The translations under genes and the position numbers were made by a program. Shown here piece after piece: positions 4,394 to 38,690 of a DNA stretch of 64,000 nucleotides; position 1 is the first letter of the stretch, and each line of letters opens with the position of its first letter. The notes below the pieces were generated by a model. That model did not search any database, had not been told where the DNA came from, and saw nothing but the letters and a program-made list of their open reading frames with translations. Source of the DNA: Cladocopium goreaui (Eukaryota; Sar; Dinophyceae; Suessiales; Symbiodiniaceae); the NCBI GenBank assembly GCA_947184155.2, contig CAMXCT020001131.1, forward strand, positions 47,501-111,500, in the 5' to 3' direction.

Positions 4394-7300
4394 GGTAGGG
4401 CCTGTTGAGGCTCTTTTCCCTCCACCGGCTTCTTCAGGCTGTGGAAGCTTCCATCAACCTCATGATGTTTTGGAGACTCCGATGGACCTCCTCGATGGGC
4501 ATGCCAGACTGATCCGTTGGCTCCAAGCACTTGCGCTGTTGGCTCCATCGCAGGAACGGCATCGTCCGATTGTGGTCGTCCTTCACCAAATGGTAGGACT
4601 TGCAGTCCCGGAACAGCGCCTCTGTCGGCGTGGCCTCCATCAGCTTCTGAAGCCTGCTGTCCAGCTCCTTGATCATGGACAGCGCCAGGAGGTGGCGGAG
4701 TGGGACAGATTTTTCCGTTTGCTGGTGCCATTGGCGGCTCTGTTCCATCATCATTGGAAGTATGCTCCCTTGGCCAGGGGCCAGATGAAGCAAAAACTGA
4801 CTCTCCTGAAGGAGACTGTTGATGGTGTCCTCGTGTTTCATCACCAGGCGGCATAGGGTTCCCAGCACTGCTGTTGGCATTGTTGTGGATGCTTTGGAAC
4901 TGGAGCGTTCCCTCCGATCTGTTCTGGGCCTTTTGGAGTCTCGATCGGCTGGTGCTGCAATGCCCAATGCTGCCATCTGGTCCGCCGTCAGCAAGTTGCC
5001 CCAAATCTTGGAAGCCGCATCGATGCCTTCCGAGGCCTCTGATACCGTATCCATTGAGGAGAAAAACGGCAAGGTTGAGGAGGGCCGGGCACTGCTCTGT
5101 GTGCTTTTTGAGGCCGCAAAATTGGCATGGATCCACACATCGCAGGGCCAATCTTGTATAGCACATATAGGTTTGAAATTGCAAGAAGTTGTGGTCACGA
5201 TGGAGGTGCTGAATCATATGTTGTGAAATGAAAAACACTTTGCCACAAAGGAGACATTTGTGTGTCACACAATCGGCAATCAAGGTGTCTTCGAGCAGTT
5301 GTAAACCACATTGTGCCGTCAGTTCAAGTGACAATCCAAAGGTATCTGAGGAGCTGACGTTGAACTGCCACATCTTCAAGGCATGCTGTTGGCGGGTCTC
5401 TGCGATCTTTTCCTGGGAAGCCCATGTCAATGGTTGCAAAGCCGGACTGGACCATTTCGGATGCATGAGCAGCAAAGCCATCTGTGTGACCATCGGACAC
5501 TTCTCAAGATGTGCATGGGGATCCACACGTAGCTCGTCCTCAGAATCCAGATATGTTGGAAGCAGATCATTGCACCAGTCACAACGTTCATCTTCCAAAC
5601 TCAATGACGAATACACTGCACTGAGTTGATGTGTGACATACTGCAACTTGTCTGCAGTGATCTGGTGTCGGACCACCAAGTGAGCCTGGATGTGATGTAG
5701 CGCAACTTGCTCCTGACAGATCAAGCAGCGATTGGCCAGCATACCAAGCAAATCTGAATCCTCCCACAGCAAATGAAAACTGCGTGTGATCAAAGCCATT
5801 GAGATCTTCTGGAGGGCTGCACAGGGGAGCAGGTCGGCCAGGAGCACCATCAGCTCATGCGATGTGTAAGGCCATGGAATCACCACCTGCCAGTTGAAAG
5901 ACGCTGCAATGATGGCCAACTGTGTCAAACCAACACATTCGTGATGCTGAATGCCCCATCCTGGAGAGGGGTTACAGAAACAGCCCATCTCCATGAACAT
6001 GCTCCATTGAAACAGCTCCTTGAGAAAGAGGCTTTCCTGCAGATGCACCGGATGTGCTGCATGGAGATGGTGTCGTAGATCTTCCGCATCAGCTCCTGAG
6101 TATCCACAGACCTGGCAGTGCATCGTCAGGTTCAGCTTCAATCCACTCCTGCAATAAAGATTGTGCACAAAGCCCAACCAGAGCAATGGCTCTATCTGTT
6201 CCACCACACTGAGGATCACGTCAGGAGGTTCAGCCAGCAGCTGCGGCATCATCTGGCATTCTTGATCAAGCCTGAGCAGGGCGAACTGCAGGTAGATGGA
6301 GCAGATGTGCTTGGTGTAGGTGGGTGGATGACACACACAGCCATGGATGGGTTTCCATTGACGGTCCAGTTCAAGAGCACGATATTCGCAAGCATGCCAT
6401 GCAGAAGCATGGTTTTGTTTGAAATGCCGATGTAATTCACGTTTGCCCACATACTGTTGTTGACATTTGATGCACCTGGTGGAAAGGAAGTGCTGAATGT
6501 CCTCCTGGAGCAAGAGGTCCTCGCACTTGTTGGCCAGGACCGCCTGATGGATCAGGCACTGCATAACCAGATCATTATCAGCAACTGCATCAACGGCCTC
6601 CTCGGCTTGATGATACCTTCTTTCATGCTGCAGTAGACCATGACGCGTCGTGTACGCCTTACCGCAGTGTTTGCACACTAAGGAGGACTTGTCACTGGCT
6701 GCTGCATGTCCATCTCTGGTCAGCAAAAGGGCCATCTGTCGTACAATGTGGCATTTGTGATACCTCTTGTAGGATGTGCCACAAAGAGTACATGGACTGT
6801 CATGTTCAAAGTGTGGCAAAAGAAGTTCATTCACAGCTTCATGGCGTTGAAATTCCGCTGGATGCTCACGCTGCCAATGCATGTGAAGTCCCTTGATGGT
6901 CGTGCTGAAAAATGAGCAAAGGGCACATCTATGATGAAAATAGGCCAAGAGTTCAGCATCAGCCGCAAGTGCCTGGAGTTGTTGTCCACGTGCATACTGC
7001 AGCATCTCTTGAACTCTGACTCGATGTTCCACTTCTTCAATGTCCTGTTGTGGTTCCATGCAAACGAACTGGACATGGTACTGCAAACTGTGATGTGTTG
7101 TGAATTTCATTTGACATCGACTGCATGTAGGTACCCCTCCAGCACGATCAGAGCTGGTGACCACACGAATCGCACCTGATCTGTCGCCATGTGCTTCTGT
7201 CAGATGTTTCCTCAATTGGGCCATGGACGCCAGTGGTATGAAGCATTCCGGACAGACCACCTGGGTATCTGGCAGGGCACTTTGCGTGCAGAGATGGCGG

Positions 7301-11387: not shown

Positions 11388-14300
11388 TCAGCCTGCTTCT
11401 GGGTCTGCAAGGCTCACATGGTCAGCTCTGGAATTGGCAGGGGCAAATGGACGAAACCGCCACAGGTGCAAACAATCGGCTCTGGTCAGCCAATACATGG
11501 TCGCATGTCTTTTCATCCAGCAAGGGACATCCCAAATTGGTTCTGGCTTTTTCCAGTCCTCTGTGAGCAGCCAATTGGCCGGATGTACAGTGCATACAAT
11601 TGATGGTGCCAATCGAAGTGCAGTTCTGATATGGCCAGCTCTGTCCATTCCAAGGTGGGCTGTCAGTGCCACCACATGATACTCAGCAGTTTCATACTGC
11701 AGAGTGTTGGTCTGAAAGAATGGGACCAAGCAAGGTTCATCCGTCTGAATCATGCACTCACTTCTGAAAATGTTGTTCATGGCATCACTAACACATCTGT
11801 CAATCTGAATGCAAAGGCACGGCGGGGCGCCAAGCAGTGCTGTTCTCATGCCATCTACCTGACACCAGAGGTTGAAAAGCTGGGTCAAATCACATGTGGT
11901 GGAGTAAGCCAGCATTGCATCAAATTTCAAGCAAATTGGCTGATGTGTGCTGTTGACATCAAAAACGCGCACATTGCCGTTTTCCTCAAATCGCCTTTCC
12001 CAGGCCATGTCGAAAGCCATGGGACGCATGAGTGAAAACCATGTAGCAACAAACTCAGCAGCATCTTGCTGAGTAATCTGATCAGGATCGAATGTGGGAT
12101 CCCGGTCACCCCAACAACGCACAATCTGCTGAAACCAGTCAGTGCAGCTCAGATTGATGCCAGAAGCATGGTCTGAGGCAAGGAAGTTTTGCAGCTCCTG
12201 GCATTGTTCTCCCCAATATGGCGTTTGCCATGTACTGGTGGACAGTGTAGTCCATAGCATCGCCTGCGCAGCAGCATTGGCAAAACAGAAATTGCCTGGA
12301 TTATCCCAGGTGAGGTGTGCAAGGCGCTGAAGCATCATGTGTGGAGTGAGCGGCAGCGCAGGAGCTACTCCTGTTTCAGTTCCAGATCCATCTTGCCCTT
12401 CCCCTTTCCCTTGCCCTTGCGGTGGCTTGAGTGCAGGTTCATGGCCTTCTGCAAGTTGTGGGCCAGAGGGCTTTGTTCCAAGCTGTGCACCTTGAGGGAT
12501 GCTCCCATCAGCAGCCAGATTGCTGAGCCGCATAGCTCCAGAAGCAGTTGCCAAGGGTGATCCAGCCGCAGACTCACTTGGAGTTTCCAGGGGGAGGTTT
12601 CCTGCTTGGCTCCAGAAGGGAGTGAATGAAACTTCACCACCATTTGAGGGTTGGTCAAGGCCTCCAGGAGATCGGTGCAAATCTGATGCAGTCGCTTCAG
12701 TCCCAGGGGCTTCTTCTTGCTGACAATCAGCTCCTTCTTGGAGTGGCACCATTCCAAGTAGGGACAAGTCTTGTCCTGCAGGAGCACCTTGGTATGCATC
12801 GCCGCCTTCAGAATCTCGGAGCCCTCTGGTGCATTCCCCAGCTGTTCCACTCTGGTCAGTAGGGTGTTCAGGAGCACCTGCAAGAGATGTTGGCGGAGTG
12901 GCTGCATTCTCACCGTGGTCCCCTCCTCCTGCTTCTCCTTCAACTTGGCCACCCAGACCTCCGTTGCCTGGACCAGGGTTTGCAAGCAGCTCTCTTTCCC
13001 TTTGTTGGCGAAAAAGAAGACGAAGGTGTCCTCCCTCTTCAGTGTCTGCAGCTCCCTGTCCAGTTTGAGGGTGAGCTTGGTGAGGAGGACCAGAGCCTGC
13101 GCCAGTTGAACCTTTTCTTGGCTTCCCTGTGGTTCCCGTTGCTTGGTGGTGTGTTCTCCTCTTCTTTGTCGCTTGGGCGGTGCATTCTGACTCAGCTTCA
13201 GGGTCTGGTCCAGGATGGGTGAGAGTTCCTGGAATGCCTGCCAAATCTGGGTCGTTGCATCCTCTGCGTCTTCCATGTGCGGTGCGTCCATAGGCTGCAC
13301 GGCTCAAAATCACTGCTGCTTGAAGGAGGCACGGACACTGGGAGCGCAGATGAACTTGGACCACTTGCTGTCTGTGCAAATCAGGCAGTTCAGCAGCATC
13401 TGTTGTCGGATGATTGATCACTTGGTGACAAGCAAAGCACTGATGATCATGTTCAAAATGGTGCAGAAAACGTTCAATCATCTGTGACATCAGAAATTTG
13501 ACCAAAAAATTGCGGCACCGGTGCGCCTCCTGCAGATGAAGGGCAAGCTCTCCAACATGAAAGGGTTCCGCACATAGGACACAGGTTGACCTCGTCATGG
13601 CCAGGATGTGATCATCGCTCCACAGTGCAGCAAAGTTCTGGGTGGTGATGAGCCTTTCAAGTTGAAATCGCATGGCCCTATCCAGTCGGCTGGAAAACAA
13701 TCCTGTCAGTTCCTCTTCAGTTGGCATTCTGGGAAAGAAAATTGCATCAGGGATTCTCATGTGCTGCATTGCTAACTGGCGCAGTGTCACGCATACATGA
13801 TGTGCTCTGGGGGCATGTACACTAGGGTTGCAGGTACAGCCATACTCACTGTAAGCCAGCTCAATGAGCAAATGGGTCAGTGGCTGAGACGCCGACCACA
13901 AGGCTGAGTGGGCTGTCTGGAGGTGCCCCATCATGTCCGCAGAGCGGGAATACTTGGCACTGCAGCTTTGGCATCTCAGCGTCAGTTGGAGTCTGGTATG
14001 GGCATCCCCAAGGTGCTTGGCCAGTTGTCCATGGCAGGTGGCATCAGTCCAGCGTTGTTGCACATCCACTACCTCCGTTGGCAGATCGGGGTTAAATGTA
14101 GGACATCGTCCCTGGTTCACATGACTGCGAAGGGACTCAATGCCATCAAACAACCCCCCGCAATGGTTGCATGCGGGTTGGCCCGCCACACTGTCCCTGG
14201 CCAGGTTGAAGGATGAACTCACCAGACGGTGGGCACGTGCCAGGTGGGAGTGCAAAGCCTCTGCATTGTCAAATTGCTGGCCACATATTTCACAAGCAAG

Positions 14301-21368: not shown

Positions 21369-24300
21369 TTAAAGCATCTCACGTGGATCTGATTGCCAAC
21401 CTATCTGATCTACTGGCATGGGTGCTGTCACTCCTGCTTGGTCATCACGGTCTTGGTTTTCCCCTTCCCCCGGCCTTTGGGCGTTCTGGTCAGGCCCATG
21501 GCTTGTTGTAAGCTCTGCGCCAGGGGGCTTTGTTTCTGCCCATGCGGTTTCAGCGAGGTGGCCATCAACAGCCAGATGGCTGAGTGGGACAGAACCTGCA
21601 TGTTCTGCCACGGAGCATCGGCTCTCAGGCTCAGGGTGAGCTTCCATGGGGCAACTTCCTGATTGCTGGTTGGCAAGGCATGAAAGGCGGTCACCAGGTT
21701 CACATCCGTCAAGGCCTCCAGCATGTCCTGACACAGTTGATGGAGTCTGGTGAGGCTCAAGGGTGGTCTTTGGCTGACCTTCAGTTGCTTCTGACTCATA
21801 TCCCATTCGAGGTAAGGACATGTCTTGTCCGGGAGGAGAATCAGATTGCTGATGGCTGCTTGTTGCACTTCCGATCCATCCTTGGTCTCCCCCAGCTTGG
21901 TGAGGCGCGTCAGGAGGGTGTTGAAGACCACTTGCATCAGGTGCTGTCTCAGAGGCATGGTCATTTGGGACTTGGATTGGCGATTGTTCACCCAGTCGTC
22001 TGCGGCCTTCACCAGGTGACTCAGACTGCTGTTTGGCCCCTTGTGCCCGAAGAAGAAGATGAATGTGTCTTCCCTTTTCAGCTGCTGGAGTTCTCGATCC
22101 AGGCGAAGGGTCAGTTTGGCCATCAGTGAGAGAGCATGTGCCACGTCGATCTTCTCCTTCAGCTGCTTGGTTTGTGGATGGCCCTTGGCCTTTGTCGGTT
22201 CTTCTTTTCTTTGTCGTTTGGGACCCGCTGCATTGGGTTCCAGCTGTAGAGAGTCGTCCAGCAGAGCTCCAATGGCCTGGAAGGCCGTCCAAACCTGTTG
22301 GTTGGTTTCTTCGGGCTCGGGCATATTCATGTCGGCCATGTGCAGCTTTGCTGAGAATCACAGCAGTCTGGAGGACACAAGGGCACTGAGCACGGAAATG
22401 CACTTGAGCAGCAGAGGTCAAGGCATCATCAGTCATGTCATCATCTGCGGCAGCAATGGTATAAACCTGCTTGCATGCAAAACATCTGGGTGGGTCATGG
22501 TTGGCAGCAGCAAATTTCGGAACAAGCTGTTGCTTGAGAAACTTGACAATTGGCAGGCCACATTGATGCGCCTCATACATGTGAAGGACCAGGTCAGCCG
22601 GATGCATGTGGGCGCCACATAGGGTGCAAGTGTCCCTCAGCAAATCCAGGTGCGTGGCATGAGTCCAGAAATCAGTCAATGTGCCAGCCGTCAGGGTGCG
22701 TTCCAACAAAAATCTGGATTCTCTGGGCAGATTCTCAGAAAAAAGTTGAACTAATTCCTCATCAGTCGGTTGATGTGGAAACAGGACAGCTCCTTGCAGG
22801 CGCATATATTGCATTGACAGCTGACGCAGGGGCAAGCATATGTGTCCAGCCCTGGGGGCTGTAATGCTTGGGTTGCATGTGCAACCTGCCTCACTGTAAA
22901 TGAGGGATGTCATGATCCCCGTCAGAACTTGAGCCTCTGACCAGAGACTGGAATGCGCAGATTGGAGGTGGCCTGAGAGGTCGGCAGGGTGCGTGTAGCG
23001 GCTGCTACAGTTTTGGCACCGCAGGGTCAGCTGGAGTCTGACATGTGCGTCACGCAAAACGTCTGCTATCTTTCCATGACACATGGCATCAACCCATTGT
23101 GGCTGAATGTCAATCACTTCTGTTGGCAGTGCCGGGTTGAACTTGGGACACCGGCCTTGGTTCACATGAGACCGCAGGGACTCCATGTTGTCGTACATCG
23201 CCAAGCAATGGGCGCATACTGGCTCCCCCTCCAAGGAGTCTCTGGCAGGGTTGTAGCTCTGGCTTTTCAGGCGGTGTTCTTGAATCAGGTGTTCATGCAG
23301 CAACTCACTGGTGGTGAAGCTGTCGAAGCAAATTTCACAGCGTAAAATTGCAGGCACATGTGTGGTTCCAGCGCTGATGCCTCCCCCGTATATGAGTAGC
23401 ATTGCAAGTTGGCACCATACTGGGCATTGGTGCGCAGCTTTGAACAGCGCCCCGCAATACGGGCATGGCGGGTCCTCTCCATGCAAATTCATGAGCTGAT
23501 GTCCCTTCTCTTGAACGTGATTCCAAAACTCTGGGTGATGCAACTTGAGGTGTCTGTGCAGTTCTTGTGTGCGGCCTAAAAAGTGATCGCATAAACAGCA
23601 TCGCTGTGCTAGGTAACTGCAGGCAGCAGTCTCCTTCTTCATGTGGTGCCAATTTCTGGAGCCAACGATGGTCAAAACTCGGTGTCCCCACTCCTGGCTC
23701 AGCATGTTGCTAAGGTCAGCATCTGTCAAGATGGCTGTGCCACGTACAGCGGGATCCATCTTTGGGGCAAACATCGTGCTGGTCAGAAGCCTGTCGGTGG
23801 CAAAGGCTTGTGTGTTGGGTTTCCAGCACACGTCTGGGCCAGCTTGCAGTACCTGGCAGCCACGTTGGATGTGGCTGGTAAAGGATCTCCAAGTGGTGAA
23901 TTTCCGATGGCAGTGTTTGCATTGTGGCAATCCGTCATGCATGTACTGTGCAGGGTCAACTGGATTGATGCGATGCATGGGTTGTGCATGTTGGGTGGTG
24001 CAATGCCTACGAAAACATGCAACGTCTTGTGTGCAAAAACCACAAATCTGACATGTCATGGAGTCTGCAAGGTTGGGCACGTCAGTCACAGCAGTGGCAA
24101 TGATGGCGTCAGGTCCTGAATGCAGGTGGGTCTGCAGAAGGCTCATGCTATCAGGTAAAACACTCCAATCAAGCGTGTGCAAGATGTCATCAGCGGTGGC
24201 TGCATCCAATCTGGTTTGAATGGACCTCTGCAAAGTTTCAGCAGATGACCATAGCCAGGCGGCAGGTAGGGCAACACGATTGTTGGTCAGTGCTGTCTGA

Positions 24301-27377: not shown

Positions 27378-29280
27378 GACTGAGATGCAACCCTCACTCC
27401 TAACACATCCAAAGAAGGAAAGAATTTGGTGATATTGGCAATGGAATGTGTTCCTGGACTTGGGACCAGGACTGCACCTAAGTCGTGTTGTGAATGGTAC
27501 TGCACTCGTATCAGCCTCTGTGTGTGCTGAGAGGAAGTTTTGCCTCCAGAAACCACCGTGAGTATGGAGCCAGGGCCTGTCTGCGTGCAGGTGTTGGGTG
27601 TGGTGAATGTCTGCAGCAGGCTGCAGGTCTGTTTGCGTCAAGATCGATCGTGGCCAAATAAGGAAAATGAATTGTTGATTGAATTGTTGAATTATCTGCA
27701 AAAAACCATAAAATTGCACAATATGCTGGGCCAGTAAGTGTTGGGAGGAGCCCACCCTCTGTGATGCAATGTTGGAATGTACTCTGTTCCTGAAAAAATT
27801 CAATCGCAGTTGTGCAGCAGTGAAATTTGAGGCCAGTGAGTCACAATGAAGGGAGCCCACCCCTGCTTTGCACGTCCAAGTGATTCCTGTTCCTGTAGTC
27901 GCAGAGTGAAGCGGATCCACTGAGGTGCAAGTATTGGGGCCAGAAAAATCTGTGCGGGGAGCCCAATCCCAGTTGTAATCACTGTGTCTGTGAGAGGTCC
28001 AGCAATGTGTGTTGATACCAATAAAAACACCTGCAAAAAATGGTGAAGCAGTGCCACGACTGTCGTTCCACACGCTTGCAAATGAGTCAGGTACCTGCTG
28101 GTAAAAATGCTGTCCACTTTGCTGATGACAAATGTATAATGCAGTATTGTGAAATAGGAGAAATCCAAGGGCCAGTGAAAAACGTAGAAGGGAGCCCACC
28201 CCTGTGTTGAATTGTAGCCTCCTGTAGCGGCTGTTGTCCTTGGCAGTGCGCAGGAAAGAGCCGCCTCTCTGTGTGATCAGGTGCAAACTTGCAGCAAGGG
28301 TCAGTATCCAAAAGAAAATATTGCCCGCCCTGTGGTCACTGTGACAAGAAAAAAGTCCGCTTGGGTGATGCAAAGAAAATAAATTGACAGCTGTATTGGA
28401 ACAGTCAGTCAGGGTGTCCAGCCCTGCGATTGTATTGTGTCGTGGGCCAGTCAGCTGTTGATGGGGAGCCCAACCCCTACTGAAGATGCGCTTGTGGTCC
28501 ACCAGGAGGGACCCGTTGTCTTGTCGAAAAACTCCAACGTAGCACGCACAAGTTGCTTGCCAATATCTGTATTCAGGGCCAGTCAGAAAGTCAAGGGAGC
28601 CCACCCCTTTGGTGCAGAGTTCCTCGTGCTCGATTTTGTTTTTGTCTCGCCAACAATTGATTACCTGTCTGCTTTGGACCAGTGAAAAAAATATACGGGA
28701 GTCCACCCCGTTGTATTGAGTCAAAAGCCGGTTGCGGTCGTGCAATGGCTGACAGAAAAAATTGTCAGAGCAATGCGTACCACCGTACGTAGGTCTGAAT
28801 GCGTTCCGTGGGCCAGTCAGCAATTCAAGGGGAGCCCACCCCCTGCAATTAGCAATACAAGTTTGGTCTGGGGTCAGTTGAATCTCCAGTGCAAGGAATC
28901 GCAAAAGAAAAATTCCAAAAAAGTGCCAGACCACCGTGTGAGCACGGGTTGCTCTGTGGATCGTCGTTTTCTGTGCAGGACAAAGGCGTCCAAATGAGTG
29001 TCAAATGGATTGTTTTAAGGAATGGTAGCACAAGCTTGATCCAAATCAAAGAGTTGCAAACGAAATCACGCAAAAGTGGCCAGTGAAAAACAAAATGTGT
29101 AGGGGAGCCACCCCCTCAATCGATCTGCAAAATGCAATGTATCCAATGTGTGAAAACAAGCCAACACCGACACCGAAGATCCCAATGGCTCGAATGACAG
29201 CAGTGCGGGGGGCACTACCTAGCGGCCGTTGCCCAGCTGGTTGGGCGTTCGAGTGCACCCGGATGGTGCAGAGGAGCTTG
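27378..29280 (-). promoter_or_regulatory. LINE C 5' UTR with nine iterated motif copies
   Basis: On the plus strand, GGCCAGTGA-N9-14-GGGAGCCCACCCC units start near 27727, 27834, 27943, 28164, 28444, 28580, 28677, 28812 and 29078, at intervals of about 100-280 bp. In element sense the core is GGGGTGGGCTCCC followed by TCACTGGCC. The same core is read as GVGS in some copies and GWAP in others. A 519-codon open frame covers the UTR but has no conserved protein features. Confidence 0.6.
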
Positions 29281-29527
29281 TGTGTGTGTGTTTTTTTTGA
29301 CAACACGCCTTTTCAAACTGTTTGCAAGGTCTGTGCCAACCAGCATGGCGTATTGCCATGGTTCCTTGGTGGAATCTTTCTGGTTCCTCTGCTATGCCGC
29401 TCAGTGTTGGAGAAATGAAAATTCATTCGATATGGCCTGTCAAAAGGCCTGATTTGGAGAAAGCACTCAAAGTCAAAGTGGGGCAAAAAGATCAGCCGCT
29501 TGAGTTTCTTTCGCACTCATAGGCAGG

Positions 29528-32500
29528 TCAGCCTGCTTCTGGGTCTGCAAGGCTCACATGGTCAGCTCTGGAATTGGCAGGGGCAAATGGACGAAACCGC
29601 CACAGGTGCAAACAATCGGCTCTGGTCAGCCAATACATGGTCGCATGTCTTTTCATCCAGCAAGGGACATCCCAAATTGGTTCTGGCTTTTTCCAGTCCT
29701 CTGTGAGCAGCCAATTGGCCGGATGTACAGTGCATACAATTGATGGTGCCAATCGAAGTGCAGTTCTGATATGGCCAGCTCTGTCCATTCCAAGGTGGGC
29801 TGTCAGTGCCACCACATGATACTCAGCAGTTTCATACTGCAGAGTGTTGGTCTGAAAGAATGGGACCAAGCAAGGTTCATCCGTCTGAATCATGCACTCA
29901 CTTCTGAAAATGTTGTTCATGGCATCACTAACACATCTGTCAATCTGAATGCAAAGGCACGGCGGGGCGCCAAGCAGTGCTGTTCTCATGCCATCTACCT
30001 GACACCAGAGGTTGAAAAGCTGGGTCAAATCACATGTGGTGGAGTAAGCCAGCATTGCATCAAATTTCAAGCAAATTGGCTGATGTGTGCTGTTGACATC
30101 AAAAACGCGCACATTGCCGTTTTCCTCAAATCGCCTTTCCCAGGCCATGTCGAAAGCCATGGGACGCATGAGTGAAAACCATGTAGCAACAAACTCAGCA
30201 GCATCTTGCTGAGTAATCTGATCAGGATCGAATGTGGGATCCCGGTCACCCCAACAACACACAATCTGCTGAAACCAGTCAGTGCAGCTCAGATTGATGC
30301 CAGAAGCATGGTCTGAGGCAAGGAAGTTTTGCAGCTCCTGGCATTGTTCTCCCCAATATGGCGTTTGCCATGTACTGGTGGACAGTGTAGTCCATAGCAT
30401 CGCCTGTGCAGCAGCATTGGCAAAACAGAAATTGCCTGGATTATCCCAGGTGAGGTGTGCAAGGCGCTGAAGCATCATGTGTGGAGTGAGCGGCAGCGCA
30501 GGAGCTACTCCTGTTTCAGTTCCAGATCCATCTTGCCCTTCCCCTTTCCCTTGCCCTTGCGGTGGCTTGAGTGCAGGTTCATGGCCTTCTGCAAGTTGTG
30601 GGCCAGAGGGCTTTGTTCCAAGCTGTGCACCTTGAGGGATGCTCCCATCAGCAGCCAGATTGCTGAGCCGCATAGCTCCAGAAGCAGTTGCCAAGGGTGA
30701 TCCAGCCGCAGACTCACTTGGAGTTTCCAGGGGGAGGTTTCCTGCTTGGCTCCAGAAGGGAGTGAATGAAACTTCACCACCATTTGAGGGTTGGTCAAGG
30801 CCTCCAGGAGATCGGTGCAAATCTGATGCAGTCGCTTCAGTCCCAGGGGCTTCTTCTTGCTGACAATCAGCTCCTTCTTGGAGTGGCACCATTCCAAGTA
30901 GGGACAAGTCTTGTCCTGCAGGAGCACCTTGGTATGCATCGCCGCCTTCAGAATCTCGGAGCCCTCTGGTGCATTCCCCAGCTGTTCCACTCTGGTCAGT
31001 AGGGTGTTCAGGAGCACCTGCAAGAGATGTTGGCGGAGTGGCTGCATTCTCACCGTGGTCCCCTCCTCCTGCTTCTCCTTCAACTTGGCCACCCAGACCT
31101 CCGTTGCCTGGACCAGGGTTTGCAAGCAGCTCTCTTTCCCTTTGTTGGCGAAAAAGAAGACGAAGGTGTCCTCCCTCTTCAGTGTCTGCAGCTCCCTGTC
31201 CAGTTTGAGGGTGAGCTTGGTGAGGAGGACCAGAGCCTGCGCCAGTTGAACCTTTTCTTGGCTTCCCTGTGGTTCCCGCTGCTTGGTGGTGTGTTCTCCT
31301 CTTCTTTGTCGCTTGGGCGGTGCATTCTGACTCAGCTTCAGGGTCTGGTCCAGGATGGGTGAGAGTTCCTGGAATGCCTGCCAAATCTGGGTCGTTGCAT
31401 CCTCTGCGTCTTCCATGTGCGGTGCGTCCATAGGCTGCACGGCTCAAAATCACTGCTGCTTGAAGGAGGCACGGACACTGGGAGCGCAGATGAACTTGGA
31501 CCACTTGCTGTCTGTGCAAATCAGGCAGTTCAGCAGCATCTGTTGTCGGATGATTGATCACTTGGTGACAAGCAAAGCACTGATGATCATGTTCAAAATG
31601 GTGCAGAAAACGTTCAATCATCTGTGACATCAGAAATTTGACCAAAAAATTGCGGCACCGGTGCGCTTCCTGCAGATGAAGGGCAAGCTCTCCAACATGA
31701 AAGGGTTCCGCACATAGGACACAGGTTGACCTCGTCATGGCCAGGATGTGATCATCGCTCCACAGTGCAGCAAAGTTCTGGGTGGTGATGAGCCTTTCAA
31801 GTTGAAATCGCATGGCCCTATCCAGTCGGCTGGAAAACAATCCTGTCAGTTCCTCTTCAGTTGGCATTCTGGGAAAGAAAATTGCATCAGGGATTCTCAT
31901 GTGCTGCATTGCTAACTGGCGCAGTGTCACGCATACATGATGTGCTCTGGGGGCATGTACACTAGGGTTGCAGGTACAGCCATACTCACTGTAAGCCAGC
32001 TCAATGAGCAAATGGGTCAGTGGCTGAGACGCCGACCACAAGGCTGAGTGGGCTGTCTGGAGGTGCCCCATCATGTCCGCAGAGCGGGAATACTTGGCAC
32101 TGCAGCTTTGGCATCTCAGCGTCAGTTGGAGTCTGGTATGGGCATCCCCAAGGTGCTTGGCCAGTTGTCCATGGCAGGTGGCATCAGTCCAGCGTTGTTG
32201 CACATCCACTACCTCCGTTGGCAGATCGGGGTTAAATGTAGGACATCGTCCCTGGTTCACATGACTGCGAAGGGACTCAATGCCATCAAACAACCCCCCG
32301 CAATGGTTGCATGCGGGTTGGCCCGCCACACTGTCCCTGGCCAGGTTGAAGGATGAACTCACCAGACGGTGGGCACGTGCCAGGTGGGAGTGCAAAGCCT
32401 CTGCATTGTCAAATTGCTGGCCACATATTTCACAAGCAAGGCCAGATGATGATTCAGTAGAGGCAGCATGGGTCTGGCCGCCACCATAAATGACCAACAT

Positions 32501-35500
32501 TGCCAACTGCGTCCACACTGTGCATTGATGCATGTTCTTGAACACTGCATGGCAATAAGGACATGGAGTGTCCTCTCCGTACATGTTTGTCAGCTGCTTT
32601 CCTTTTGCAGCCGTGTGCGGCCAATACTCAGGATGCATGGTCTTCAGGTGGTGGTTCAGATCCTGAGTCCTGCCAAGAAATTGATCGCAAAGGCAGCACC
32701 TGGTTGCCAAGTATTCACATGCAGTCTGCTCGCGACGCATATGGTGCCAGTGTCGATGGCCAACAATCTCTAAAACACGGCTGCCCCATTCTTGGCTGGT
32801 CAGATTCCTGAGATCAGCATCGGTGATCATGCGTTGGCCTCGAACAGGTCCATCCAACTTTGAATCTGCCATCTGTGCAGGGAAAACAGTGTTGTTGTTG
32901 ACTATCTGGGCAGTGTTCTGCCAGCAGGGTTCAGGTCCCGCGCAGATTGCCTGGCATCCACGTTGAATGTGCACATGGAAGGATCGCCAAGTCGTAAAAG
33001 TCTGAAAACAATACCTACATTGTGGCAATCCATTAAGCATGAACATGGCAGGATTTACATGTTTACTGCGGTTCATTCTGAGTCCATGGACAATGGTGCA
33101 ATGGCGTCTGAAATCTGCAACTTGATCAGTGTAAAAACCACATACTTGGCAAAAATAAACAGGCTCAGATGGCAAGGCAGTGGACGGCGGTGAAGCTGTC
33201 TGCTCTTCCAGGCCTCTGTGCAACTGGTCAGCTAAGAAATCTTTGAGCTGATGCAAGTGACTCCAATCTAATTGATGGACTATGTCATGGGAGGTTACGA
33301 TGTGCAAACGTTGAGTGGCTGACTGAAGCAGGGGGTCAGCAGTGCGCCACAACCATGCAAACGGCAAATCTACCCCGTGTCTGGACAATGCCTGTCGGTG
33401 GCTATGTCGTGTCAAAAAAGCGTGATCTCCCAGAACCTGTCGAAGCATGCTGTACATGTGTTGTTGGAATTTCAGGAGTCCTGTTTGGGTGATGCCTACT
33501 GTACAAATGCCGTAACTGAGGACTGGGTAAACGCATGTTGACCAAAGTCTCAAACGTTGCCACTGAGGCAGTCCACGTTTGTTCTGGAGCCATCGTGCCA
33601 ACCGTCCAAAGGCAATTTTTGAGAGCTGAATGCGATGCTGGATGGTTTTGTCTTCCATGGTATGATATGACAGCACAACACCGAGATACTTGACATGTGT
33701 GGCAATTGGAATCCAAAATGTTTGTGATCCTGCACCAGGGATCTTCAACCATTCTTTTCCATCTCTCACAGCAATGAGTTTGGAGCGTAGCTTCCGAGAG
33801 GCAGTGCCTCTAACCGCAACCAAGGCAGTGCATTTGGCTGAGTTGATGGTCATGCCAAACTCTTGCAGCAGTGCAAGTGTGGTGCTCAAATTAGACAGCA
33901 AGGTATCCAAGGCTGCTTCAGATCTGAAGGCATTGCCAAGTTGGCCATCGTCTGCATAAAAGTTGAGGCAGGTCAGGATCCACTGTCTGTCAACATGTTT
34001 ACTCAACTCAGCCAAAAAAAGCAGGACATAAATGTTCCACAGGAGAGGCGCAGCCTTACATCCCTGTCTCAGTCCGCGGCCTACTGGGATATGAGTTTCC
34101 TCCCCATGTGAAAAAAGATAATATCCTGTTTCCTGGTGCCACAATGTCAGGATGTGTGCAATGGGCGCTGGCACTCCGACGGCAGTGAGTTTGGTAAATA
34201 ATTGGGGCCTACTAACCATGTCAAAGGCGCGTTCAATGTCCAAGAAAACTCCAATCCCTCCAGCTATGCGCAAACGTGGTGTTTGCTTTGCTCTGCAAAA
34301 CGGTGTGGGTCGCTGGGCAGCCAGCAATGTGCGCACTTCCTTGCAGTGCAAAACAACCCTGAGGATGGCATCTTGTGTCGAACGTTTGGGTAAATAAGAC
34401 CAAATGGGCCAAATTGTGATGGTAGGCATGATCGCATTTTGGGCCTTAGCCGCAAGAAGTCCCATCACTGTCTTACCTAATGGTTCCTGGAGCGCCAACG
34501 GGCGCAATGCCCGCGGGTGCACTGGGGGTTTATTAGGTTTTGGGATGAGAAGCATCCATCCAGCTTTAAACCAATGGGGGATATATGGCTTGGGACTGAT
34601 CCACCATGATTCAAGGACGGAATGCAAAATTGGAGCCAATTGCAATGCCAGGCCCTTCCACACCGTGCCAGGAGCACAGGGTCGTGCTACCGCCTTCACC
34701 GCCGGTATGGCTTTCAGTGCTTGTGCAAGTTCCTCCACAGTGAAAGGCAAACCTGTCAGAGGGGCTGTACTCACTGGAAATGTGCTGGGTCCATGCCATG
34801 TGTCTTGGATAAATTGTGTCAACATGGCAGTCTCCTCAGTTGGTGTGGCAATTTGACCAGCCAAGTTTCCAAGCTGCATGCGGCGTTTCGGTTGTTTTGG
34901 GGTGAACTGATTGATTATTCTGAAAAGGGAATGCGTGTCATGTCGTGATGCTGCAATTGCAGCTCTAGTTGTCACTTCTTCAAATCTGAGTTGTCGGACA
35001 TGAATGGCATGTTTCCGAGCTTGGCGTTTCAGGCGTTGGAACCTTGCACTGTGGTACCATGCATGAAAAAGATTGGAAAAGGTGATATTACTAATGTTCC
35101 GCAATTCCCGTCTGTGAAACCATTTGGTCATGATAGTGGTCTTGGCCTGTGTATCTGTTTGTTTGGGTTTGCCATGGCGTGGAAAGTGTTCATTGAAATG
35201 CTGGCAAGCTATATGATGCAAGTCTGAAATGACAGTTGAATCTGAGGGCGTTGCTTCCATCAAACGGTTCTGTAGTGGCTCACATAGCGCATTCAGAAAA
35301 CATTGCCATTGCTCTGACTCAGCATGAAACGCAAGAAGTCCCTGTTGCCTTTGGCCAGGGCTGATGTTCGGAACCTGCGATTCATGTGCTGGAGGGATCC
35401 AGTGTTTCCGTAAAAGTCCAATCATGGGAGCATGTCCAAAAGAAGTGCAAAATGGTGCATCCCACGTATAACGGATGTTTTTGGCACATCCATCTGCAAT

Positions 35501-36481
35501 GGTTTTACGTGTGATGATATAATCTATTCTAGAACATGCAGTGGGACTCTGGAAAGTTGGGCCAGCCTCCGGGTGCCATGTATTCAGCGCTACAAGGCCA
35601 TGCATGCGCAAGGTGGACATGAATTGCCCTTGATCCTCATGTTGAGCCCCCTGGGTCATTGTCCCTCTCCACCGGAAGTGGGAGGGACCTGCATGGGAGC
35701 TACACTGTGGCAAGCAAGTATTGAAGTCTCCAGCAAGGAACAGGGTGTTCCTGGTGGCCAAATTTCTGAGCAGGGTATCTAGTTGTTTCCACCAGTGGAG
35801 CCTTTCATTTCGGCGTTTGGCCGTGTGTCCCTGTGTGTGCTGGTAGCAGCCCACGAAATCAATACTGCGATGTCTGCCCTGAATTTGCAAATGCATAAGC
35901 CGTCCAGGAAGGACCGATCTCCATCTGATTTGTTGTTGGGTGCAGAGCCTTGTAGAGATAAGGCATATAACTCCTGCTCCTCGATCATTACCCTGTCCAG
36001 TGTGCACATGGTGCCAGTTGGCATCACTCCATTCAGCTTCAAAAGTCATTCTCGTCTCGGTCAGAAAGGCAGCGTCAATACGTTGGGCATCAAGCCAAAT
36101 CTTGATCTCATCCAATTTTGAAAAATTGAGTCCGCCAGTATTCCAATGAAATAGACGAAGCCGCTGGGAGTCTTGGTGTCTGCGGTTGCATTCAATGTGA
36201 TCACGTGCAGCACCAGATTTCTGAGGGTCCTGTATCTTTGGTGGAGCAATGTGCATTCCATTAGGAAAGTCACTAGGAGTATAGCACCTACCTCGGTACC
36301 ACGCAAGCCCATGTTGGCATGCTCTGGCAAAGGCACGTCTGATGCTTCTCTTTTTGACTTTGGTGTGAGCAGAGGACCAGGTGAGTTTCTGAGATGTATC
36401 AGGTTGCATGTCATGTTGCTTTGCATCCATCTTATCTATAAGGCCTTGTTGCCACATGGTGGATGCTCCAGCGCTCCCCAT
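29528..36481 (-). CDS. LINE B2 main ORF, intact: EN - RT - zinc fingers - linker - USP
   Basis: A 2317-codon ORF from ATG 36481. Residues about 42-66 are basic (KKRSIRRAF..WYRGR). Residues 108-355 are the AP endonuclease (FHWNTGG, TETRM, CYQH, GDFN at 251, RIDY at 318, GHAPM at 349). YADD is at about 842. C2H2-like fingers lie at roughly 1150-1680. A low-complexity linker over the +1 ORF spans 1684-1995. The USP domain runs 2010-2300 with C2019 in NPGNFCFANA, QQDAAEF, DRAGHIRTAL and WLLTEDW. It is the only copy here with every part in one frame, so it may be active. Open reading continues upstream to 37465 but lies over the 5' UTR repeats. Confidence 0.85.
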   Translation of the reverse strand: MGSAGASTMWQQGLIDKMDAKQHDMQPDTSQKLTWSSAHTKVKKRSIRRAFARACQHGLAWYRGRCYTPSDFPNGMHIAPPKIQDPQKSGAARDHIECNRRHQDSQRLRLFHWNTGGLNFSKLDEIKIWLDAQRIDAAFLTETRMTFEAEWSDANWHHVHTGQGNDRGAGVICLISTRLCTQQQIRWRSVLPGRLMHLQIQGRHRSIDFVGCYQHTQGHTAKRRNERLHWWKQLDTLLRNLATRNTLFLAGDFNTCLPQCSSHAGPSHFRWRGTMTQGAQHEDQGQFMSTLRMHGLVALNTWHPEAGPTFQSPTACSRIDYIITRKTIADGCAKNIRYTWDAPFCTSFGHAPMIGLLRKHWIPPAHESQVPNISPGQRQQGLLAFHAESEQWQCFLNALCEPLQNRLMEATPSDSTVISDLHHIACQHFNEHFPRHGKPKQTDTQAKTTIMTKWFHRRELRNISNITFSNLFHAWYHSARFQRLKRQARKHAIHVRQLRFEEVTTRAAIAASRHDTHSLFRIINQFTPKQPKRRMQLGNLAGQIATPTEETAMLTQFIQDTWHGPSTFPVSTAPLTGLPFTVEELAQALKAIPAVKAVARPCAPGTVWKGLALQLAPILHSVLESWWISPKPYIPHWFKAGWMLLIPKPNKPPVHPRALRPLALQEPLGKTVMGLLAAKAQNAIMPTITIWPIWSYLPKRSTQDAILRVVLHCKEVRTLLAAQRPTPFCRAKQTPRLRIAGGIGVFLDIERAFDMVSRPQLFTKLTAVGVPAPIAHILTLWHQETGYYLFSHGEETHIPVGRGLRQGCKAAPLLWNIYVLLFLAELSKHVDRQWILTCLNFYADDGQLGNAFRSEAALDTLLSNLSTTLALLQEFGMTINSAKCTALVAVRGTASRKLRSKLIAVRDGKEWLKIPGAGSQTFWIPIATHVKYLGVVLSYHTMEDKTIQHRIQLSKIAFGRLARWLQNKRGLPQWQRLRLWSTCVYPVLSYGICTVGITQTGLLKFQQHMYSMLRQVLGDHAFLTRHSHRQALSRHGVDLPFAWLWRTADPLLQSATQRLHIVTSHDIVHQLDWSHLHQLKDFLADQLHRGLEEQTASPPSTALPSEPVYFCQVCGFYTDQVADFRRHCTIVHGLRMNRSKHVNPAMFMLNGLPQCRYCFQTFTTWRSFHVHIQRGCQAICAGPEPCWQNTAQIVNNNTVFPAQMADSKLDGPVRGQRMITDADLRNLTSQEWGSRVLEIVGHRHWHHMRREQTACEYLATRCCLCDQFLGRTQDLNHHLKTMHPEYWPHTAAKGKQLTNMYGEDTPCPYCHAVFKNMHQCTVWTQLAMLVIYGGGQTHAASTESSSGLACEICGQQFDNAEALHSHLARAHRLVSSSFNLARDSVAGQPACNHCGGLFDGIESLRSHVNQGRCPTFNPDLPTEVVDVQQRWTDATCHGQLAKHLGDAHTRLQLTLRCQSCSAKYSRSADMMGHLQTAHSALWSASQPLTHLLIELAYSEYGCTCNPSVHAPRAHHVCVTLRQLAMQHMRIPDAIFFPRMPTEEELTGLFSSRLDRAMRFQLERLITTQNFAALWSDDHILAMTRSTCVLCAEPFHVGELALHLQEAHRCRNFLVKFLMSQMIERFLHHFEHDHQCFACHQVINHPTTDAAELPDLHRQQVVQVHLRSQCPCLLQAAVILSRAAYGRTAHGRRRGCNDPDLAGIPGTLTHPGPDPEAESECTAQATKKRRTHHQAAGTTGKPRKGSTGAGSGPPHQAHPQTGQGAADTEEGGHLRLLFRQQRERELLANPGPGNGGLGGQVEGEAGGGDHGENAATPPTSLAGAPEHPTDQSGTAGECTRGLRDSEGGDAYQGAPAGQDLSLLGMVPLQEGADCQQEEAPGTEATASDLHRSPGGLDQPSNGGEVSFTPFWSQAGNLPLETPSESAAGSPLATASGAMRLSNLAADGSIPQGAQLGTKPSGPQLAEGHEPALKPPQGQGKGEGQDGSGTETGVAPALPLTPHMMLQRLAHLTWDNPGNFCFANAAAQAMLWTTLSTSTWQTPYWGEQCQELQNFLASDHASGINLSCTDWFQQIVCCWGDRDPTFDPDQITQQDAAEFVATWFSLMRPMAFDMAWERRFEENGNVRVFDVNSTHQPICLKFDAMLAYSTTCDLTQLFNLWCQVDGMRTALLGAPPCLCIQIDRCVSDAMNNIFRSECMIQTDEPCLVPFFQTNTLQYETAEYHVVALTAHLGMDRAGHIRTALRLAPSIVCTVHPANWLLTEDWKKPEPIWDVPCWMKRHATMYWLTRADCLHLWRFRPFAPANSRADHVSLADPEAG
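30505..31431 (-). CDS. LINE B2 overlapping ORF (308 aa, +1 frame)
   Basis: Near-identical to the B1 copy, and open throughout. The ATG lies in main-frame AAYG and the stop about 40 bp before the USP ATG ATG codons. How it would be translated (leaky scanning, internal entry or +1 frameshifting) cannot be seen from sequence; there is no main-frame stop before it, so simple reinitiation is excluded. Confidence 0.7.
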   Translation of the reverse strand: MDAPHMEDAEDATTQIWQAFQELSPILDQTLKLSQNAPPKRQRRGEHTTKQREPQGSQEKVQLAQALVLLTKLTLKLDRELQTLKREDTFVFFFANKGKESCLQTLVQATEVWVAKLKEKQEEGTTVRMQPLRQHLLQVLLNTLLTRVEQLGNAPEGSEILKAAMHTKVLLQDKTCPYLEWCHSKKELIVSKKKPLGLKRLHQICTDLLEALTNPQMVVKFHSLPSGAKQETSPWKLQVSLRLDHPWQLLLELCGSAIWLLMGASLKVHSLEQSPLAHNLQKAMNLHSSHRKGKGKGKGKMDLELKQE

Positions 36482-38460
36482 GACTGGAGCGCAACCCTCA
36501 CCCCCAGTAGACTCCATGAGTTGTAAAATCCAGTGCAGCAAGAACACACCTACAATAAGGTGAAAAATTCGCAATCTGCAAAAAGGAATACACTTGAGTC
36601 TACCCCTGGACTTGGGACCAGGTTGACCACCTCTAGTTTTGAGTGATCTCGAAGGCTGGACACTCAAGCTCGGTTTCTGGCGCTGAAAAGGTCTCGGGCA
36701 AAATGACACTTTGATCCAGACAGAAATGTGTGCTACTAATCTGGGCAATAGTCGCAGGCTTGCAACCAATGTTTTCCAAAGCCTCAAATAAATCAAGAGG
36801 AAGGTGCAAACGCTAAGAAATATGGCCCAGGGAAGAGGTGACTCTCTGATGTCAGGGTCGTGCAGCTTGAAAATGTTGAAATTAAATGTCACGTCACCAA
36901 CGGTTTCAGTCCAAAGAGTCACAGTTCCACTCCAAGTCCAGGTCAGAGCACAGTGCAACCACTGTGATCTCAGCAAAAGAATTCTGCCGCCAGAGAGGAG
37001 AAAGAATTGGGGCTCTGTCCAAAACTTCAATCCAATGTATTGTCGTCGCAGCCAAAATATGTGCAAACAATGGCACCACTCACCAAGGCCAGAATTCAGC
37101 AAAAGGGAGCCTACCCCACAGTGCGGTGAAAGTGGTTGCCAGGAAATGGATTGTTGGTCAAAATCAATAAATCTTTTAATCCAAGACCGCAAAAAGGTCC
37201 AGCAGTTCTGCCAAATGGATTCAAAGCCAAAATTAACTGTTATCGTCGCTGTCAGTCCCACACGCAAATCAGTGAGCCAGAAGGAGATGCCACCGTCGCA
37301 ATGAAGAAACTGTGTACAGAGAGCAAAAATCCGATTTCTGTTGATGAAATTAATGCACAAGGGTACAATGCAATGTCGCTGAATGAAATCAAGGCCAGTG
37401 AGAAAATCGTGGGAGCCTACCCCAATCTCAACGCGATCCAAATTAACCACAAGGGTACAATGCAATGTCGCTGAATGAAATCAAGGCCAGTGAGAAAATC
37501 GTGGGAGCCTACCCCAATCTCAACGCGCCCTCCGTTCACCGTGAGCGCACCAATGTATTGCTGATAAGTGTCAGACCTGATAAATCTCTCTGTCCAGCTT
37601 TTTGTCACCCAGCAAATAATGGTCAGTGTGATATGAAATGGTGTGGGTGTTACTTGCAAAAAGTCCACCACTAGGCCAGTGAGAAAATCTTGGGAGCCTA
37701 CCCCAGTGAAAATCTCCGCACAATGTACAGTAGAAATGCAAGAACCCCTCAAATATGGGTCAGAGCAAGAAATGTTCTGCTGCAATCGTCCCCCCACGTC
37801 TCCTGGACCAGTGAAAAGCGCACGGAAGCCCACTCCGCAGTTTTGGAGTACGTGGGAGGTCACCGTCGAAAAATTATGAAGTTCCGAGTCAAAAAATTGG
37901 GGTATCAACCCAGCTACCCCAGTCCAATCGGCAAACTGTTCCAAGTTGTGAGCGTTGGTCACGAGTTGTGATGTATGCCAATTGAACAACGTTGAATCGC
38001 GTTGCTTGTGTCCAAAATGATTGGTGAGAGGACCCTGGCCAAGGCCAGTAAAATCAGTCCAGGAGCCTACCCCGCAGTGTTGGTCCAGGGCCCTCTCAGC
38101 AGTCCAATAATGATGCAAAATAAGCAAGCCAACCAAAAACAAAGTACACAAGCTGGTGGGGAAGTACTTTCTGAAAGGCAGAGTCGTGGTTCCAATTGTA
38201 AATGCAGCACAGCAATTGCAAGGTGCGGCACCAAGCCAAAATGAATGTCACAAATCAATCAATAAGAAAATCGGAGAGGCCCTCACAATCAAATGAAATC
38301 AAGAAGATGCGGCGCAAGCAAGGATCCCAGTCCAAATGAAATGACACAGCAGCTGCACGACACAGAATGACCAAATGGCACGTCTCTACCTAGATTCGCC
38401 CGATCTCTACTCCCGCTTCAGGTTGCTTGAGTGCCACCAGGCAGGTGGCAAAGGGGCTTG
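36482..38460 (-). promoter_or_regulatory. LINE B2 5' UTR with iterated motif and 92-bp duplication
   Basis: Same iterated GGCCAGTGA..GGGAGCCTACCCC units as B1. One unit, with the flanking GGGTACAATGCAATGTCGCT, is present twice (about 37361-37434 and 37455-37528), with a short filler between. This shows that unit number changes between otherwise nearly identical copies. Confidence 0.6.
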
Positions 38461-38690
38461 TGTGTGTGTGTATGTGAAAGAGTTGTGTGAGACAAAGAGT
38501 TGTGCGGGAAAATAAAATCGTGTGTGGAAGAGTTGTGTGTGACAAAGTTGTGTGAAAAAGTTTGTGTGAAAAAGTTTTGTGTGTGTGTATGACAAAGCTG
38601 TGCAGGAAAGAGTTGCACCAGTGTGTGCGTGCGTGTGCGTGACAAAGAGTTGTGTGCGACAAAGTTGTGTGAAAGAGTTGTGTGTGACCT
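38459..38690. repeat. TG-rich minisatellite, right block part 1
   Basis: GTGTGTG runs separated by GAAAGAGTTG and GACAAAG units. It directly adjoins the 5' end of LINE B2 and is the same repeat type as 2231-2613. Confidence 0.85.

What the first reader, a model, noticed from the sequence alone, without database searches (positions are those of the whole stretch)
30505..31431. Conserved overlapping ORF in the +1 frame of all LINEs
Seen: between zinc fingers and USP, a 200-310 codon ORF lies in the +1 frame of the main ORF in A (5054), B (13291, 31431) and C (22339). The ATG sits at the same place and in the same relative frame each time (main-frame AATGGA, TATGGA, CATGGC). Its protein is conserved (KRQR, LKREDTF-FFF, PLRQHL, CPYLEW, PWKL-SLR, basic tail), while the main frame there is Gly/Pro linker yet remains open. 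This looks like genuine dual coding, perhaps an ORF1-like protein placed inside ORF2.
Basis: partly seen in the sequence, partly recalled or inferred. Interest (0 to 1): 0.9.

Follow-up and report, generated by a model that had tools for sequence, protein, structure and literature searches.

The report
Hidden second gene inside dinoflagellate LINEs
A family of jumping genes in a dinoflagellate genome carries a complete extra protein gene of about 300 codons, read one base out of step inside its main gene, and both readings have been kept by natural selection in many very different copies.

Summary
The overlapping ORF (OV; 30505-31431, minus strand) is real and protein-coding. It lies in the +1 frame between the zinc fingers and the ubiquitin-protease domain of a LINE. 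Three genome searches list relatives at 274 distinct places, down to about 28% identity; in those read, frame and ATG are nearly always the same.

Both frames are selected, unequally. OV evolves as a conserved protein (close-pair N/S about 0.12). The main frame across it evolves as free linker (N/S about 1), yet avoids stops absolutely: T before a GA-starting codon occurs 0/2133 times in OV versus about 50% in single-coding flanks. Linker composition is selected too. The main frame is presumably read through to keep the protease attached.

OV most likely starts at its own AUG, not by frameshifting: the AUG is conserved, in-frame stops often lie just upstream, and out-of-frame AUGs are depleted for about 72 nt upstream, where a spliced-leader-like motif also sits in many copies. 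A short trans-spliced or internally started mRNA is my favoured, untested mechanism. OV has no known relatives; an ORF1-like role is inference. Copy A is a frameshifted copy of the same design.

The parts
30505..31431 (-). Overlapping ORF (OV) of copy B2, 308 aa, +1 to the main frame; basic Lys/Gly tail
12365..13291 (-). OV of copy B1, same protein as B2
21428..22339 (-). OV of copy C, 303 aa, 54% identical to B
4434..5054 (-). OV of copy A, 206 aa; its C-terminal part lies in the main frame, an indel relative to relative L099
29528..36481 (-). Main ORF of B2 from a likely start ATG (36481; start choice inferred); the frame is open up to 37465
35498..36145 (-). APE-type endonuclease domain (PF03372) of B2
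   Evidence: coordinates converted from residues 441-656
33674..34252 (-). Reverse transcriptase domain (PF00078) of B2
   Evidence: residues 1072-1264
32369..32437 (-). C2H2 zinc finger (PF13894) of B2, best stretch
   Evidence: residues 1677-1699
29771..30442 (-). Ubiquitin-specific-protease-like domain (PF00443 UCH); one Cys kept in 70 of 70 rows, two His in 67 of 70
31432..31503 (-). Stretch upstream of the OV ATG in which third-frame ATGs are depleted across the B-type copies (putative leader)
31495..31506 (-). Spliced-leader-like motif position 75 nt upstream of the OV ATG (7 of 12 matches in this copy; 5 to 10 of 12 in relatives)
29269..38471 (-). Whole element B2 as bounded by identity to B1 and by CA runs

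Best explanation
OV is a separate protein gene overprinted in the +1 frame on the linker between the zinc fingers and the deubiquitinase-like domain of a dinoflagellate LINE polyprotein. Shown by sequence: OV is under purifying selection as a protein; the main frame is under strong selection to stay open, and in composition, across it; OV's ATG is conserved. Inferred: OV is translated from its own AUG on a shorter mRNA whose 5' end lies roughly 70-100 nt upstream, made by spliced-leader trans-splicing or internal transcription at a spliced-leader-like motif. Inferred more weakly: OV is the element's ORF1-equivalent (nucleic-acid-binding or RNP protein), while the full-length RNA gives the endonuclease-RT-zinc finger-protease polyprotein.
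For: Recurrence: 128 OV matches by B's OV, 150 by A's, 133 by a divergent one; 274 distinct places in all. Frame: zinc finger to OV is +1 in 30 of 33 rows and 55 of 59 measurable rows of 60; OV to protease returns to the main frame in 51 of 58 measurable rows of 60, 107 of 118 found through the protease and 12 of 12 fetched A-type copies, though not in window copy A. Openness: 0 main-frame stops in 90 of 93 rows; the other 3 carry an indel inside OV. T before GA 0/2133 in OV, 468/932 and 977/1988 in flanks. Composition: stops 0 vs 572 expected, Trp 0.22, Cys 0.22, Tyr 0.33, Gly 2.41. OV selection: nine close pairs, p(NN)/p(SN) 0.008/0.063 and 0.029/0.263; main frame dNN/dNS about 1.0-1.3. Start: +4 G in 66/70 rows, an in-frame stop 3-21 nt upstream in 30/70; third-frame ATGs within 72 nt 2 vs 18.1 expected; Gln before TG CAG:CAA 25:1 near vs 25:42 far. 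SL-like match at -90..-45 above 300 of 300 synonymous shuffles in both clades, in different codon phase.
Against: No RNA, ribosome or peptide data. In 30 of 70 rows another in-frame ATG lies farther upstream in OV's open frame, and OV-frame ATGs are not depleted in the nearest 24 nt (8 vs 7.2 expected). The depletion signal rests largely on two columns (CAR-TG and CCN-TG, 12.6 of 18.1 expected), and some codon columns elsewhere are equally biased for unknown reasons. A-type rows have 6 ATGs outside the main frame at 49-72 nt. The SL-like heptamer TGGYYCA is missing upstream in 25 of 70 rows, and windows at -180..-135 also score somewhat high. Copies in a clade are related, so counts are not independent. 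No spliced leader with up to 3 mismatches lies in the window; of the 100 listed genomic copies (of 172) one lies within 20 kb of a listed OV, 225 nt past its end, none at an OV start. No AG is fixed upstream of the ATG (at most 41% at any offset). The AF2 model of OV is poor (pLDDT 45). The search by OV favours intact OVs.
Confidence: 0.75

Rival explanations
1. OV is reached by programmed +1 ribosomal frameshifting from the main ORF, giving an endonuclease-RT-zinc finger-OV fusion; unshifted ribosomes make the protease form.
For: OV is +1 in most measured rows and starts at the end of the zinc-finger region; retroelements often use frameshifting (general knowledge).
Against: ATG at the same place in divergent copies with +4 G in 66/70, in-frame stops 3-21 nt upstream in 30/70, which leaves those copies almost no room for a shift site before the ATG; third-frame ATGs avoided upstream, meaningless for a frameshift; no run of synonymously conserved codons at the start.
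Confidence: 0.12
2. Only OV is coding; the main frame over it is open by chance or codon usage, and the protease is a separate ORF.
For: The main-frame linker sequence evolves freely (dNN/dNS about 1.0-1.3; 4-fold diversity ratio 0.951 as in flanks 0.946 and 0.951).
Against: Stop-making choices 0 where 572 are expected, 0/2133 T before GA against about 50% in flanks; the protease returns to the main frame in 107 of 118.
Confidence: 0.03
3. Only the main frame is coding; OV is an accidental open frame.
For: None found beyond the general possibility that long G/C-rich linkers leave other frames open.
Against: OV protein is as conserved as the flanking domains (mean pairwise identity 0.37 vs 0.35 and 0.36), OV N/S about 0.12 in close pairs, conserved ATG, third frame 10-27 stops.
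Confidence: 0.02
4. OV has its own AUG but is reached on the full-length RNA by an internal ribosome entry site or reinitiation, not on a short mRNA.
For: Same start-codon evidence as the best explanation.
Against: No conserved RNA sequence next to the start (synonymous codon use ordinary in the last 60 nt except the CAG-TGC and ATG columns); no main-frame stop nearby from which to reinitiate.
Confidence: 0.2

Closest known systems
Overprinted (overlapping) genes of viruses
   Same: A second protein gene in another frame of an existing coding sequence (start of abstract of PMC8227390, seen in the listing)
   Different: Here in a LINE of a eukaryotic nucleus, about 300 codons, kept across the depth of a large family; the listings showed no such case
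SymbioLINE-Dnmt elements of Symbiodinium (PMC5890265, passages read)
   Same: Dinoflagellate LINE with APE endonuclease and RT and an added protein gene
   Different: There the extra gene (a methyltransferase) is mostly in an ORF upstream of the RT ORF; here it is nested in the RT ORF and has no known relatives
Non-LTR elements with Ulp1-type cysteine protease, such as NeSL and Utopia (recalled; PMC4640811 seen only as a listing with term counts)
   Same: A cysteine protease of the (de)ubiquitin-like kind added to a LINE protein
   Different: Here the domain is of UCH/USP type (PF00443), C-terminal, with OV overprinted before it
Microsatellite-targeted LINEs of the R1 clade such as Mino and Waldo (recalled, not fetched)
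   Same: Insertion at CA-type repeats
   Different: Clade not tested; architecture differs

Membership tests
APE-type LINE (non-LTR retrotransposon) | APE-like endonuclease and RVT_1 reverse transcriptase in one ORF | tested here: met
   PF03372 E 1e-12 and PF00078 E 9.5e-20 in B2
APE-type LINE (non-LTR retrotransposon) | No long terminal repeats | not tested
   No dedicated search; no LTR noticed
APE-type LINE (non-LTR retrotransposon) | 3' end with A-run or simple repeat at the junction | tested here: met
   All four window copies end in an A-run joined to CA repeats
Overlapping (dual-coding) gene pair | Second frame conserved as protein | tested here: met
Overlapping (dual-coding) gene pair | First frame demonstrably maintained over the overlap | tested here: met
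Overlapping (dual-coding) gene pair | Both proteins produced | not testable with these tools
   No expression data
LINE ORF1 protein (L1 ORF1p, zinc-knuckle or esterase types) | Known ORF1 domain | tested here: not met
   No Pfam family matched by more than 1 of 41 members at E 0.1, none of them an ORF1 family; profile search of PDB best E 1.2
LINE ORF1 protein (L1 ORF1p, zinc-knuckle or esterase types) | Nucleic-acid binding or chaperone activity | not testable with these tools
   Only a basic Lys/Gly tail supports it
USP/UCH deubiquitinase | PF00443 match and catalytic Cys and His | tested here: met
   24.0 bits against cut-off 23.9; Cys 70/70, His 67/70; that these are the catalytic positions is recalled
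Spliced-leader trans-spliced gene | Spliced leader joined to the mRNA at an acceptor upstream of the start | not testable with these tools
   SL-like motif only; no RNA data

The most novel reading that the evidence does not exclude
These LINEs exploit their host's spliced-leader trans-splicing: an acceptor that imitates the spliced leader is hidden in the zinc-finger coding sequence, so one genomic RNA gives two capped mRNAs, one for the replicase-protease polyprotein and one for an overprinted ORF1-equivalent, with the polyprotein's linker reduced to a stop-free carrier for the second gene.
Probability: 0.28. Interest if true: 0.92.

Novelty: new variant of a known kind. Interest (0 to 1): 0.82.

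Why it matters
Long, ancient overlapping genes are best known from viruses; one of about 300 codons, kept throughout a large and diverse LINE family, shows that nuclear retrotransposons can hold them too. It also separates two kinds of constraint cleanly: one frame conserved as a protein, the other only as an open hydrophilic tether. It gives dinoflagellate genomics a concrete place to look for hidden mRNA start sites and a test case for how spliced-leader organisms decode internal genes.

Tried and rejected
Natural experiment rejected: copies in which OV seemed fused in frame to the main ORF (L035, L058, L084, L094) or rearranged (L098) proved to be single copies with an indel relative to closer relatives, so the main-frame stops counted in L084, L094 and L098 (7, 6 and 25) are no evidence on relaxed selection. 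L069 was printed too but is partly masked, and I draw nothing from it.

Conserved AG acceptor next to the OV ATG: none at a fixed place. Spliced-leader relic in the window: none. A first version of the frame table failed on a program option and gave empty results, repeated. Pfam, PDB by sequence and by profile gave nothing for OV (below-threshold matches only). AF2 from the three window sequences is too poor to interpret; the fold search did not complete. Relatives in viral contigs: the profile was too variable to search. Rfam on the window: 0 families. Elements with the protease but no OV: 10 of 128 protease matches had no listed OV match just upstream; 3 of the 10 are partial protease matches and 7 cover most of the domain, but the OV lists are capped and I could not read those places, so an OV-less ancestor remains untested. 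The first genome pattern search was a probe of the tool and bears on nothing.

Counting notes: the 70-row set holds 69 distinct loci (L010 and winB2 are the same locus); 21 rows were dropped there for reasons printed in the call (main frame not open over both flanks in 13, ATG far from the expected place in 8), and L009 and winC were left out beforehand as repeats. Because that set requires an open main frame in the flanks, it favours intact copies; the 93 rows (91 distinct loci) have no such filter. In one search three rows (L018, L025, L035) were counted from an internal ATG. The 51-row set keeps rows under 75% OV identity.

Full report
What was checked. The finding claims a 200-310 codon ORF in the +1 frame of the main ORF of all LINEs in the window. 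One search lists it at 30505-31440 (copy B2, ATG at 31431), 12365-13300 (B1), 21428-22339 (C) and 4434-5198 (A, ATG at 5054), all on the minus strand. The main ORF of B2 carries APE endonuclease, reverse transcriptase, C2H2 zinc fingers and, at its end, a UCH/USP-type protease domain. OV lies between the last two.

Host. The genome (1.17 Gb, 6202 contigs) holds 172 exact copies of the 21-nt dinoflagellate spliced leader and none of its reversed control, so I take it for a dinoflagellate; the species was not identified.

Recurrence. OV of B gave 128 scored matches in the genome, 100 to 30% identity, with a stop inside 4; re-aligned copies go down to 28%. OV of A gave 150 matches, 4 with a stop inside; 101 of these are A-like, the rest B-like at E about 1e-12 or weaker, so the two are one family. 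A divergent B-type OV gave 133 matches, 6 with a stop. Merged, the three searches list 274 distinct places ('A-like' assigned by me from the hit list). Each search scores only its best candidates, so this is a lower bound.

Same design. In fetched copies the zinc-finger frame leads to OV at +1 in 30 of 33 rows and 55 of 59 measurable rows of 60. OV leads back to the main frame at the protease in 51 of 58 measurable rows of 60 and in 12 of 12 fetched A-type copies, but not in window copy A. To avoid choosing by OV, I searched with the protease: 128 matches, 118 with a listed OV match immediately upstream, 107 of these 118 in the expected frame, 11 not. The exceptions looked at in detail are copies with an indel (L035, L058, L084, L094, L098; window copy A against its 86% relative L099); the rest were not examined one by one.

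The main frame must stay open. Across OV it has no stop in 90 of 93 rows, while the third frame has 10-27. The 3 other rows have an indel inside OV. Synonymous shuffles of OV give 2.6-9.7 main-frame stops on average per row. The strongest control is the same copies' single-coding flanks: T as third base before a GA-starting codon is found 0 of 2133 times in OV, 468 of 932 in the zinc-finger flank and 977 of 1988 in the protease flank. A-type copies, window copy A included, give 0 of 371. At four-fold sites, relative to flanks, OV's third-base choice avoids main-frame stops (0 vs 572 expected), Trp and Cys (0.22), Tyr (0.33), Phe (0.49) and Lys (0.57), and favours Gly (2.41), Asp, Glu and Pro (about 1.5). 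The third-frame control in the same call also shows large shifts (Val and Leu about 0.35, Trp 2.38), from lower T and higher G at OV third positions overall; but stops rise there (1.26), and in the main frame Ser, also T-initial, is not depleted (1.00). So the main frame appears to be read as a hydrophilic linker.

But its sequence is free. Four-fold diversity relative to shuffles is 0.951 in OV against 0.946 and 0.951 in the flanks. Main-frame linker identity is 0.204 against 0.186 in stop-free shuffles; I judge this small excess to be shared ancestry, though weak constraint is not excluded. In nine close pairs OV nonsynonymous to synonymous change is 0.008/0.063 and 0.029/0.263, while main-frame nonsynonymous and synonymous change are about equal (0.008/0.008, 0.029/0.027). 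Over 26 pairs the main frame's dNN/dNS is 1.27 (1.19-1.35) and its dSN/dSS 0.86 (0.51-1.34); OV's dNN/dSN is 0.37 (0.28-0.46) and dNS/dSS 0.25 (0.12-0.42). These pooled values are driven by 17 distant pairs, several of them with few comparable flank sites.

How OV is started. An ATG lies at the same place in divergent copies, G follows in 66 of 70 rows, and an in-frame stop lies 3-21 nt upstream in 30 of 70; in 30 of 70 another in-frame ATG lies farther upstream. In 51 divergent rows third-frame ATGs within 72 nt upstream number 2 against 18.1 expected, from 73 to 432 nt 124 against about 85.5 (summed by hand). OV-frame ATGs in the nearest 24 nt are not depleted (8 vs 7.2), as expected if in-frame starts are harmless. 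Gln codons before TG, where CAA would make an ATG, are CAG 25: CAA 1 within 72 nt, 25: 42 farther upstream and 27: 40 in the protease region (Fisher p 8e-8 near against far). Two columns give 12.6 of the 18.1 expected, but the other sites of expectation near 1 (29, 38, 56, 65 nt) are also 0. Thirteen A-type rows have no ATG in the last 48 nt and 6 at 49-72 nt, 3 of these in OV's frame. This is what a scanned leader of roughly 50-75 nt would show.

A possible 5' end. In the window -90 to -45 the best match to the last 12 nt of the spliced leader averages 7.63 in B-type and 8.00 in A-type copies, above 200 of 200 permuted 12-mers in both and above 300 of 300 synonymous shuffles in both. Of the four other windows tested, -180 to -135 is also raised (A-type 2 of 200 permutations and 15 of 300 shuffles reach it; B-type 5 of 300 shuffles but 91 of 200 permutations). 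In B-type the motif reads as Leu-Ala/Val-Gln codons, in A-type as Cys-Gly-Ser/Leu, that is in another codon phase, at about the same distance. It is not universal: TGGYYCA is found upstream in 45 of 70 rows, 33 of them at the same spot, and missing in 25; single rows match at 5 to 10 of 12. PMC6050394 (passages read) reports that spliced-leader relicts 50-100 nt before start codons are more conserved and that this is the usual 5' UTR length; PMC12014239 (passages) and PMC2488372 (passages) describe loose acceptor requirements. Of 100 listed exact spliced leaders, one lies within 20 kb of a listed OV, 225 nt past its end, and none at an OV start. So trans-splicing or transcription start at this motif is my favoured but unproven step.

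What OV is. An orphan family: no shared Pfam match in 41 members, no significant PDB match. Invariant Trp, Leu, Arg and Lys positions and a Lys/Gly tail. A role like ORF1 is suggested by the tail and by the lack of any other candidate noticed; the 5' region was not searched for one systematically.

Literature. Ten searches over open PMC papers; by titles and abstract openings the rows listed (2 to 20 per search, of up to 232 papers) show no LINE with a nested overlapping gene and no LINE with a USP-type domain. The library lacks most subscription papers and I read only passages of six papers, so this is not proof of absence.

Verdict.

Noticed in passing
2290-39609: The four LINEs A, B1, C, B2 stand head to tail, each ending in an A-run joined to a CA repeat and beginning with CA repeat then AAGCYCC; CA-rich repeats flank the whole array. 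Suggests CA-microsatellite targeting.
   Followed up: partly
genome-wide OV matches: 27 of 28 neighbouring OV matches under 25 kb apart are on the same strand; 17 of the 28 lie 7.5-10.3 kb apart and 7 more 17-19 kb: head-to-tail arrays are a habit of the family.
   Followed up: partly
10599-10610, 18490-18501, 27456-27467, 36608-36619 (minus strand): GGTCCCAAGTCC occurs upstream of the main start in all four copies; in A and C it sits in what looks like a small hairpin whose stem differs in a pair-preserving way (by eye). Rfam has no match.
   Followed up: partly
37086-38074 and 27722-29122: 5' regions of B2 and C hold about 6 spaced copies of a 22-33 nt motif that looks alike in both (by eye). 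Function unknown.
   Followed up: no
zinc-finger and protease flanks, 3 or more codon columns: Some single codon columns outside OV are almost invariant in codon (TTC at about -127, GAG at about -238, CAG in protease column 185) for no reason found.
   Followed up: no
11388-19941: B1 is nearly identical to B2 (99.6-99.8%) but its main frame is split into two ORFs that overlap near 16.5 kb.
   Followed up: no
genome place C1037, about 74879: An exact spliced-leader sequence lies 225 nt past the end of an OV match on the same strand, where the protease should be; not read.
   Followed up: no
49666-58588: Plus-strand ORFs that look by eye like a Copia-type element with a Lys/Gly-rich first ORF; not searched.
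   Followed up: no
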